Assembly (NCBI GenBank): GCA_021776565.1 | Contig: JAJFFQ010000021.1 | Span: 1 to 64,000, forward strand | Reading direction: 5' to 3' | Length of the DNA: 64,000 nucleotides | Origin: Robiginitomaculum sp. | Lineage (GTDB): Bacteria > Pseudomonadota > Alphaproteobacteria > Caulobacterales > Maricaulaceae | Part shown: piece by piece, positions 91 to 31,987 of the stretch | Layout of the letters: the number at the start of each line of letters is the position of its first letter | How positions within the stretch are numbered: position 1 is the first letter of the stretch | Notes under the pieces: generated by a model | What the model was told of the DNA's origin: nothing | The model's input: only the letters and a program-made list of their open reading frames with translations | The model's database searches: none | Program-made: the position numbers and the translations under genes

Positions 91-112
91 TCCTGTTTTT
101 ATCAAAGCTACT

Positions 113-141
113 GGAATGACACAGAATTTTAAACAGTCCCC
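113..141. mobile_element. Probable terminal inverted repeat of the IS256-like element
   Basis: Read on the minus strand, this begins GGGGACTGTTTAAAATTCTG and continues TGTCATTCC. It lies just outside the transposase start, where an IS256-family left end is expected. Ends of the type CTGTTT..AAATTCTGTGTCA occur in that family. The partner end is beyond the window, so the element cannot be closed here. If correct, the IS abuts the phased repeat beginning at about 147. Confidence 0.45.
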
Positions 142-146
142 TTCGC

Positions 147-237
147 TGACCTTCAGGTGTCCCTTAACTGACCCATTTGCTGGCTAATTTGCCCCTTAAA
201 CGTCCCTCAAATGCCCCTTATTGTCCTTTATTTATTG
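147..237 (-). repeat. Phased 7-mer repeat, copy R1 (inverted relative to R2 at 31593-31696)
   Basis: On the plus strand this carries TGACCTT (147), TGTCCCT (158), TGACCCA (169), a degenerate TGGCTAA (181) and further TGCCCCT, CGTCCCT, TGCCCCT and TTGTCCT units at about 11-bp steps. The reverse complement of 31600-31680 aligns with it over roughly 80 bp without large gaps. The alignment includes the shared TGGCTAATTTG and CAAATG-CCCTTATTGTCC blocks. Identity is about 80 percent by eye. Function unknown. Confidence 0.75.
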
Positions 238-238
238 G

Positions 239-396
239 TGCTATCGCGACGGTAAACCTCGCTATTTGAGCACGTGACTCTTGCTATCGCGACGGTAAAC
301 CTCGCTATTTGAGCGAGTATCCAGTGTGCTATCGCGACGGTAAACCTCGCTATTTGAGCACGTGATTTTTGTGCTATCGCTTTGCTATATGAGCAC
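239..396. repeat. Four-unit tandem repeat, period 43-45 bp
   Basis: Units start at 239, 282, 327 and 372. Each of the first three has a 33-bp conserved core beginning TGCTATCGCGACGGTAAACC and ending CGCTATTTGAGC, followed by a variable spacer of 10-12 bp. The fourth unit has lost the central GACGGTAAACCTC block and reads TGCTATCGC then TTTGCTATATGAGC. The core itself holds a GCTAT direct half-repeat. Spacers are far too short for CRISPR. The array lies between the phased repeat R1 and the DUF2155 gene end. No function is assigned; an iteron-like protein-binding array or a minisatellite are both possible. Confidence 0.85.
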
Positions 397-468
397 ACGA
401 AAATTACTTATCCCCACCCGCGTAAGGGCAGCTATAATGGCCTAATTTGAATAGTCGTTGCGGGCGTA

Positions 469-31385: not shown

Positions 31386-31592
31386 GATGCAGTTCCCTTT
31401 TTTATGATTGGAAGCTATACATGTTTCTCAAAGAGGCTACATCAAAAAAAATCATGGATGCGCTCATTAGGGTTCTGGCATCCCCTATGCCATTCCGGCA
31501 ACCCTGACTTGTATGACATCAATATCCAAATTACACGATTATAGAGATGCTGTGCAAAGAGTGGATAAACTCATTTTATCCCCGACTAATGC

Positions 31593-31696
31593 AGGGTCAC
31601 ACAGGGACAATAAGGGTCATTTGAGGGGCATTTCAGGGACAAATTAGCCATTATAAGGGTCAGCCAAGGGACATGAGGTGTCCCTCATGTGTCCCT
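31593..31696 (+). repeat. Helically phased AGGGNCA array, copy R2
   Basis: AGGGNCA units start at 31593 (T), 31603 (A), 31613 (T), 31624 (G), 31635 (A), 31656 (T) and 31667 (A), with a degenerate TTAGCCA filling the 31646 position. Steps are 10-11 bp, one DNA turn. Two inverted units TGTCCCT follow at 31679 and 31690. The reverse complement of the central part aligns with R1 at 147-237. Confidence 0.85.
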
Positions 31697-31709
31697 TGAG
31701 TGTGGATAT

Positions 31710-31733
31710 GGGGATAAGTTGTTGCTTATCCCC
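31710..31733. other. Perfect hairpin GGGGATAAG-TTGTTG-CTTATCCCC
   Basis: A 9-bp perfect stem with a 6-base loop directly follows the R2 array. No T-run follows on either strand, so it is not a typical terminator. Each arm contains a DnaA-box-like TTATCCCC. Confidence 0.7.
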
Positions 31734-31739
31734 TCCACT

Positions 31740-31828
31740 CGTCATTGCGGCCCTCACTTTCGTAAGCGTAAACTGGCCGGAACCCATTTTGATGCATCAA
31801 GGTGGATTGCGGTCTTCACCGCAATGAC
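31740..31828. repeat. REP/MITE-like palindromic element
   Basis: Terminal inverted repeats GTCATTGCGG (31741-31750) and CCGCAATGAC (31819-31828) enclose a spacer with an internal GCGGTCTTCACCGC hairpin. Elements with GTCATTGCGG...CCGCAATGAC ends are common dispersed intergenic repeats in bacteria. Confidence 0.7.
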
Positions 31829-31987
31829 ACCGTTTTGGAGATTTGACTTTGTTAGAAATACCCCAGATTTATCCAACCGGGAACGCTGGTGATGTATGAT
31901 TGTGGCTGGTTGGGTATTGATACCAGGGTTGCCGAGTCACAGACCCGGGATTTCGAATAAGGTATTTTGACATTGTGAATACAGTTC

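What the first reader, a model, noticed from the sequence alone, without database searches (positions are those of the whole stretch)
31593..31696. Helically phased AGGGNCA array, with an inverted diverged copy 31 kb away
AGGGNCA occurs at 31593, 31603, 31613, 31624, 31635, 31656 and 31667 (with a degenerate unit at 31646), steps of 10-11 bp, ending in two inverted units. This puts one site per DNA turn on the same face. The reverse complement aligns with 147-237 over about 80 bp, including a shared TGGCTAATTTG block. Divergence with retained phasing suggests selection, perhaps as a cooperative binding array for an unknown protein. A simple dispersed repeat is the alternative.
Basis: partly seen in the sequence, partly recalled or inferred. 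Interest (0 to 1): 0.72.

Follow-up and report, generated by a model that had tools for sequence, protein, structure and literature searches.

The report
Helically phased oriented chromosome site arrays
Related marine bacteria carry dozens of copies of a DNA array of about 120 bases that repeats a seven-letter word once per turn of the helix; the array points in one direction along the chromosome, and its spelling differs between lineages while its geometry stays, so it is probably a docking platform for an unknown chromosome protein.

Summary
The array is real and where stated: 9 AGGGNCA words in 104 bp, against at most 4 in 200 shuffled windows. It is one of 32 model hits in its own genome. 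Arrays occur in 15 of 18 genomes of its genus and in none of 119 other genomes of the family. Geometry is kept: a 10.6-10.8 bp period, and a first-direct to first-inverted distance of mostly 108 bp, or whole turns less, in three genomes. Letters are not: two genomes spell the word A[GT][CT]GTCA in direct and inverted units alike, at 107 bp in the one measured. Orthologous arrays are hardly more alike than others. This points to a sequence-specific protein binding once per turn. Arrays are polar: neighbours under 30 kb apart are (-,+) 28 times, (+,-) once, same-direction 14 times. The window's two copies, 31 kb apart, form such a divergent pair. Best reading: oriented chromosome-organising docking arrays for an unidentified self-associating protein. 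Binder and function are inferred, not shown; a mobile-repeat origin remains possible.

The parts
31593..31696 (+). Phased array: 7 direct AGGGNCA heptads at steps of 10-11 bp (21 across one slot without a word), then 2 inverted heptads (31679-31685, 31690-31696)
   Evidence: model R1 hit 31591-31730, E 1.3e-25
31642..31655 (+). Slot without a heptad: so in all 19 own-genome rows of alignment A1, but filled in several G003 and G010 copies
   Evidence: alignment; pooled consensus has no AGGG there
31561..31583 (+). Leader hairpin GTGGATAA...TTATCCCC; a TTATCCCC box before the first heptad recurs in G010, G012 and G014 and is weak in G015
   Evidence: sequence; left consensus per genome
31538..31543 (-). 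ATTATA (TATAAT on the minus strand) 5' of the leader, recurrent in other copies; role unknown
   Evidence: sequence; recurs in copies
31710..31733 (+). 3' hairpin GGGGATAAG...CTTATCCCC following the inverted heptads
   Evidence: sequence; recurs in own-genome copies
136..232 (-). Second array, divergent partner of the first (31 kb away); its 3' part is cut off by a sequence that looks like an insertion-sequence end
   Evidence: model R1 E 4.8e-18; sequence; identity of the insertion not tested
239..396 (-). Copies, the last one degenerate, of a hairpin repeat (TGCTATCGCGACGGTAAACCTCGCTATTTGAGCAC) between array and leader; also in other own-genome copies
406..415 (-). Leader box GGGGATAAGT of the second array

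Best explanation
Each array is a docking platform for about 10-12 copies of one sequence-specific, self-associating DNA-binding protein, one per helical turn on the same face, closed at its 3' end by inverted sites. Tens of such arrays sit at intergenic sites around the chromosome, with polarity, and act mainly on the DNA on one side, so that they organise the chromosome (boundary, anchor or loading site). Shown here: phase, length, polarity, dispersal, concerted change of the word, and the orientation-spacing rule. Inferred: that a protein binds, that it oligomerises, and that the role is chromosome organisation.
For: Period 10.7-10.8 bp in G000, G010, G012, G003, G002, G007 and G014 (only 1 to 4 arrays for the last four) and 10.6 in the G015/G011 set. 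First-direct to first-inverted distance mostly 108/98/88 in G000, 106-109 in G010, 108/98 in G012, 107/97 in G015 and 117 in G014. In 83 matches (G010, G012, two of G000, three echoes) the AGGG columns carry 1.1-2.0 bits in 7 of 9 slots. Word switch in direct and inverted units together: AGGGN[CT]A 3.5-5.1 per array and A[GT][CT]GT[CG]A 0.0-0.4 in G000, G010, G012 and G014, against 0.0 and 2.9-3.4 in G015 (20 arrays) and G011 (8); inverted forms switch likewise. R1 finds none in G015/G011; R3 finds none in 8 of the 9 AGGGNCA-clade genomes and 2 weak hits in G003. Sites with the same neighbour on the same side and strand: 28 of 40 G010 and 28 of 38 G012 arrays, against 1 inverted and 1 inconsistent pair; array identity there (0.635) is close to that of non-orthologous pairs (0.621), and right flanks are at shuffled level. 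Orientation-spacing: -+ median 22 kb, ++ and -- 57, +- 86; slope -31 kb, n 123, 0 of 3000 strand shuffles. No conserved RNA structure in A1 (3 pairs, 0 covarying).
Against: No binder was found. Even spacing alone is weak (P 0.13, 0.17, 0.05), and a simple 3'-coverage model is only modestly supported (P 0.01-0.43 over nine settings). Positions are hardly shared with the distant G014 and G015 (5 of 40 and 1 of 40 G010 arrays; only 20 sites of each were compared). Three of 18 genus genomes show no array. Copies within G000 and G012 are homogenised (within-genome identity 0.71-0.73), so some conservation may reflect copying rather than selection. The word switch is not perfectly clean: arrays L346 and L361, not in the count, each hold an AGGG-type word, and R3 also rings weakly in G014, G005, G008 and G013.
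Confidence: 0.5

Rival explanations
1. A non-autonomous mobile repeat (MITE- or REP-like) spread and homogenised by transposition or gene conversion; the phased words are sites of its own recombinase and the host gains nothing.
For: Dispersed, intergenic, species-specific copies; leaders and hairpins travel with the array in G000; G000 and G012 copies are more alike than orthologs; few shared sites with distant clades.
Against: 28 of 40 and 28 of 38 sites shared between G010 and G012 in the same orientation. Within-genome similarity fades on both sides without a sharp boundary in most genomes; target-site duplication was not tested. The orientation-spacing rule is not expected of insertions. 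No transposase gene was searched for.
Confidence: 0.22
2. A strong DNA-gyrase site: a 130-bp wrapping signal at gene ends.
For: The E. coli gyrase motif is 130 bp with GC periodic at 10.75 bp on both sides of a central part (PMC6379681, passages and section 23). The array has similar length and period and AT-rich spacers, and half of the sites are convergent.
Against: Words are base- and strand-specific. G015/G011 use words such as ATTGTGA without a GC-rich core, and AGTATCA units recur.
Confidence: 0.06
3. A multi-copy centromere of the ParR/parC or omega type (ribbon-helix-helix protein on 7- to 11-bp repeats).
For: ParR dimers each bind one parC iteron, and DNA wraps a superhelix with 12 dimers per turn (PMC5016525, passages).
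Against: Tens of dispersed chromosomal copies; par genes beside arrays were not searched for.
Confidence: 0.1
4. A bidirectional terminator or insulator between convergent genes, or a transcription-factor regulon.
For: 48 of 95 sites with both neighbours called are convergent, 8 divergent; in sampled stretches 12 of 51 gaps of at least 150 bp are convergent (stretches chosen around arrays, simple gene calls). Hairpins on both sides.
Against: 47 of 95 sites are not convergent; no conserved RNA structure; does not explain the orientation-spacing rule.
Confidence: 0.12

Closest known systems
parC iteron arrays of plasmid ParMRC systems
   Same: Repeats about one helical turn apart, bound by a protein that wraps DNA (PMC5016525, passages)
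   Different: Tens of polar arrays on a chromosome; inverted closing units; par genes not searched for
MraZ box upstream of mraZ
   Same: Short direct repeats about 10 bp apart (Mollicutes core site (AAAGTGKN3)3, PMC5282649, passages); these genomes carry three ATGGGA-type repeats upstream of mraZ
   Different: 3 units and a different word; one mraZ gene with two matched halves in carriers and non-carriers alike
Strong gyrase sites and BIMEs
   Same: About 130 bp, 10.75-bp periodicity; BIME-2 elements are intergenic (PMC6379681, passages)
   Different: Word- and strand-specific here; GC core lost in the G015/G011 dialect
Oriented chromosomal motifs: KOPS, and CTCF in animals (CTCF recalled; KOPS from the abstract start in the listing)
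   Same: Polar sites whose orientation matters for chromosome-scale action
   Different: Multi-unit phased arrays; orientations are mixed along G010 contigs, not one per replication arm; binder unknown

Membership tests
REP/MITE mobile repeat | Defined ends with target-site duplication | tested here: inconclusive
   Homology fades about 80 bp left and 40 bp right of the array without a sharp edge in most genomes; duplication not tested
REP/MITE mobile repeat | Positions vary between related genomes | tested here: inconclusive
   28 of 38 G012 arrays share site and orientation with G010; with G014 and G015 few do
Strong gyrase site | GC content periodic at 10.75 bp in two arms | tested here: inconclusive
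   Period fits in G000, G010, G012; G015/G011 words lack the GC-rich core
Strong gyrase site | Gyrase cleavage at the site | not testable with these tools
   needs cleavage mapping in living cells
ParMRC centromere | 10-11 bp direct iterons | tested here: met
ParMRC centromere | Adjacent parM/parR genes | not tested
   Pfam was run on 20 window proteins only and named no par gene
MraZ box | Word of the genus's own mraZ promoter (ATGGGA) | tested here: not met
   Array word is AGGGNCA; ATGGGA-type repeats upstream of mraZ occur in genomes with and without arrays
Structured RNA | Covarying base pairs | tested here: not met
   A1: 3 pairs, 0 with changes on both sides; no Rfam match in the window at gathering scores

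The most novel reading that the evidence does not exclude
A bacterial genus marks its chromosome with tens of polar, helically phased arrays that work like oriented boundary or loading sites, in the manner of CTCF: divergent arrays may lie close together, facing arrays are kept about 86 kb apart, and the array word and its protein co-evolve into lineage-specific dialects.
Probability: 0.3. Interest if true: 0.92.

Novelty: categorically new. Interest (0 to 1): 0.75.

Why it matters
No bacterial system known to me (recall, not a search) combines multi-site phased arrays, polarity, orientation-dependent spacing and lineage dialects. If a protein reads them, it would be a clear bacterial case of oriented, array-based chromosome organisation, with natural dialects as ready-made specificity variants for finding and testing the protein. 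Four paper searches (only titles and abstract starts seen) listed nothing that describes it.

Tried and rejected
Structured RNA: rejected. MraZ as binder: disfavoured; the weak MraZ-like hit beside array L013 lies in a protein that looks secreted by eye. Gyrase wrap: my strongest lead for a time, dropped after the G015/G011 dialect. Even spacing alone: weak. Replichore polarity: orientations are mixed on the G010 contigs; a GC-skew difference (-0.008 against +0.023) may follow gene direction. Shared positions at deeper distance: few, and several same-side pairs have the gene on the other strand; one search recounts with strand demanded. One search used too lenient gap costs; one search replaces it for identities. 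A slot-occupancy count is not informative, since copies start at different slots.

Rows dropped: I entered listed, mostly full-length hits. Left out: partial or echo hits in G000 (among them C71:26598, C47, C62, C10) and G002; one G012 hit (C19:14182, minus, E 8e-5), which would have added a -+ pair; and two G002 hits 0.2 kb apart on contig C101 (+,-), which look like an assembly fold-back and would make the count 28 to 2. G004, G005 and G013 were not entered. The lists for G006, G007, G008, G011 and G015 are incomplete because outputs were cut or scoring was limited; G011 gave no pair. The genomes of the AGGGNCA clade share sites by descent and are not independent; G014 alone gives P 0.0026, and G012, G014 and G015 together 0.0006. 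With the weakest hits removed, the G010 means are 50 (-+) against 103 kb (+-).

Full report
What was checked. The minus-strand copy at 136-232 is the same element.

Copies. The own genome (2.9 Mb, 74 contigs) has 28 BLAST matches to a 161-bp query and 32 matches to model R1 at E<=0.001, or 40 at 0.01 including partial hits and reverse-strand echoes. Model R1 was built from 33 copies without structure. In the genus R1 finds 13 of 18 genomes: G000 32, G006 31, G014 34, G002 42, G010 41, G003 40, G012 39, G017 19, G007 18, G005 17, G008 12, G004 10 and G013 9. Model R2 (16 copies) adds G015 and G011, and model R3 (16 copies) gives 23 hits in each of these, the number scored. G001, G009 and G016 have none by any model. 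Outside the genus: 0 of 119 family genomes with each model, and in an order-wide draw of 299 genomes only 4 genus members with R1. Searches of more than 40 genomes use stricter filters, so weak arrays may be missed there.

Geometry. The AGGG period peaks at 10.7-10.8 bp, and the G015/G011 word at 10.6. The distance from the first direct to the first inverted word falls mostly on values one turn apart: 108, 98, 88 in G000; 106-109 and 97-99 in G010; 108, 98 in G012; 107, 97 in G015; 117 in G014 (24 of 28, 24 of 40, 37 of 38, 18 of 20 and 18 of 20 arrays could be measured, and a few lie elsewhere). Indels between copies are mostly whole units; L047 has single-base ones.

Letters. In 83 matches, mostly from G010 and G012, AGGG columns carry 1.1-2.0 bits in 7 of 9 slots; G is 91% over the pooled GGG columns, and C replaces it mainly in slot 3. 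In the counted G015 and G011 arrays (20 and 8) the word is A[GT][CT]GT[CG]A with inverted TGACAAT, and AGGG-type words are absent; in G000, G010 and G012 the new word is absent, and in G014 it occurs 0.4 times per array. Two arrays outside that count, L346 and L361, each hold an AGGG-type word. Because the inverted units changed along with the direct ones, copying of one repeat along one strand does not explain the change; one reader protein would. On a MraZ protein tree (174 columns, 3 of 15 forks strongly supported) the AGGGNCA genomes with the window form one group (support 92/94), and G015, G011, G014, G005, G008, G013 and G016 another (100/100); genomes without detected arrays lie in both halves of the tree.

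Position. Of the arrays compared, 28 of 40 in G010 and 28 of 38 in G012 have the same neighbour on the same side and strand; 1 pair is inverted and 1 inconsistent (flank proteins about 84% identical). G000 shares 12 of 28 with G010, with 4 inverted pairs, short flanks and broken contigs. With G014 and G015 (20 sites each) few are shared: 5 and 1 of the G010 arrays. At shared G010-G012 sites arrays are hardly more alike than at unshared ones (0.635 against 0.621; shuffled 0.571), while right flanks are at shuffled level (0.581 against 0.578) and left flanks, often coding, are higher (0.685). So at close range place, direction and phase outlive the letters.

Setting. Of 95 arrays with both neighbours called, 48 lie between convergent genes, 21 and 18 between tandem genes and 8 between divergent genes; 11 more lack a call on one side. 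Pfam on 20 window proteins names ordinary genes such as RecO, an Era-type GTPase, signal peptidase, RelA/SpoT and polyphosphate kinase.

Orientation and spacing. Among 123 neighbouring pairs on shared contigs, -+ pairs (43) have a median of 22 kb, ++ (26) and -- (31) 57 kb, +- (23) 86 kb; under 30 kb there are 28 -+, 7 ++, 7 -- and 1 +-. Strand shuffles within genomes never reached this (0 of 5000). By genome: G010 P 0.0014, G012 0.0054, G014 0.0026. Both -+ and +- pairs are inverted repeats, so the difference needs an array that acts with polarity. The window's pair, 31 kb apart, is a -+ pair. I read this as arrays acting mainly on their 3' side. The coverage test of that reading is only modest.

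Mechanism. Most likely a protein that reads the heptad, binds once per turn and self-associates, giving a wrapped or filament complex closed by inverted units, with a chromosome-organising role. The protein is not known; binding, self-association and role are inferred. [quoted passage not shown] this makes a link to convergent gene ends worth testing but is not evidence for one.

Noticed in passing
window 100-160, with L010 and L026: The array at the start of the window is cut by a sequence resembling an insertion-sequence end, also seen at L018, L022 and L026. Contig C10 (L026) starts with a similar end followed by the 3' part of an array, and the two flanks match the same G010 site, L229. 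A short stretch of the array seems to be present on both sides.
   Followed up: partly
window 239-396: Copies of a 35-bp hairpin repeat between leader and array; they recur at the same place in many G000 arrays.
   Followed up: no
window 31740-31830 and right flanks of other copies: GC-rich palindromic repeats (ATTGCGG...CCGCAATGAC) lie just 3' of several arrays.
   Followed up: no
L286-L303: Three ATGGGA-type repeats about 10 bp apart upstream of mraZ in the genomes printed: they look like a MraZ box (ATGGGA word and name partly recalled), distinct from the array word.
   Followed up: partly
L316-L335 (G014): Inverted TGACCCT units are multiplied in many copies, and G014 leaders seen carry TGTCAAAGAGC, which recalls a reversed boxA (recalled, not tested).
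   Followed up: no
G000 and G003 contigs: Many arrays lie within a few hundred bases of a contig end, so these repeats seem to break the assemblies.
   Followed up: no
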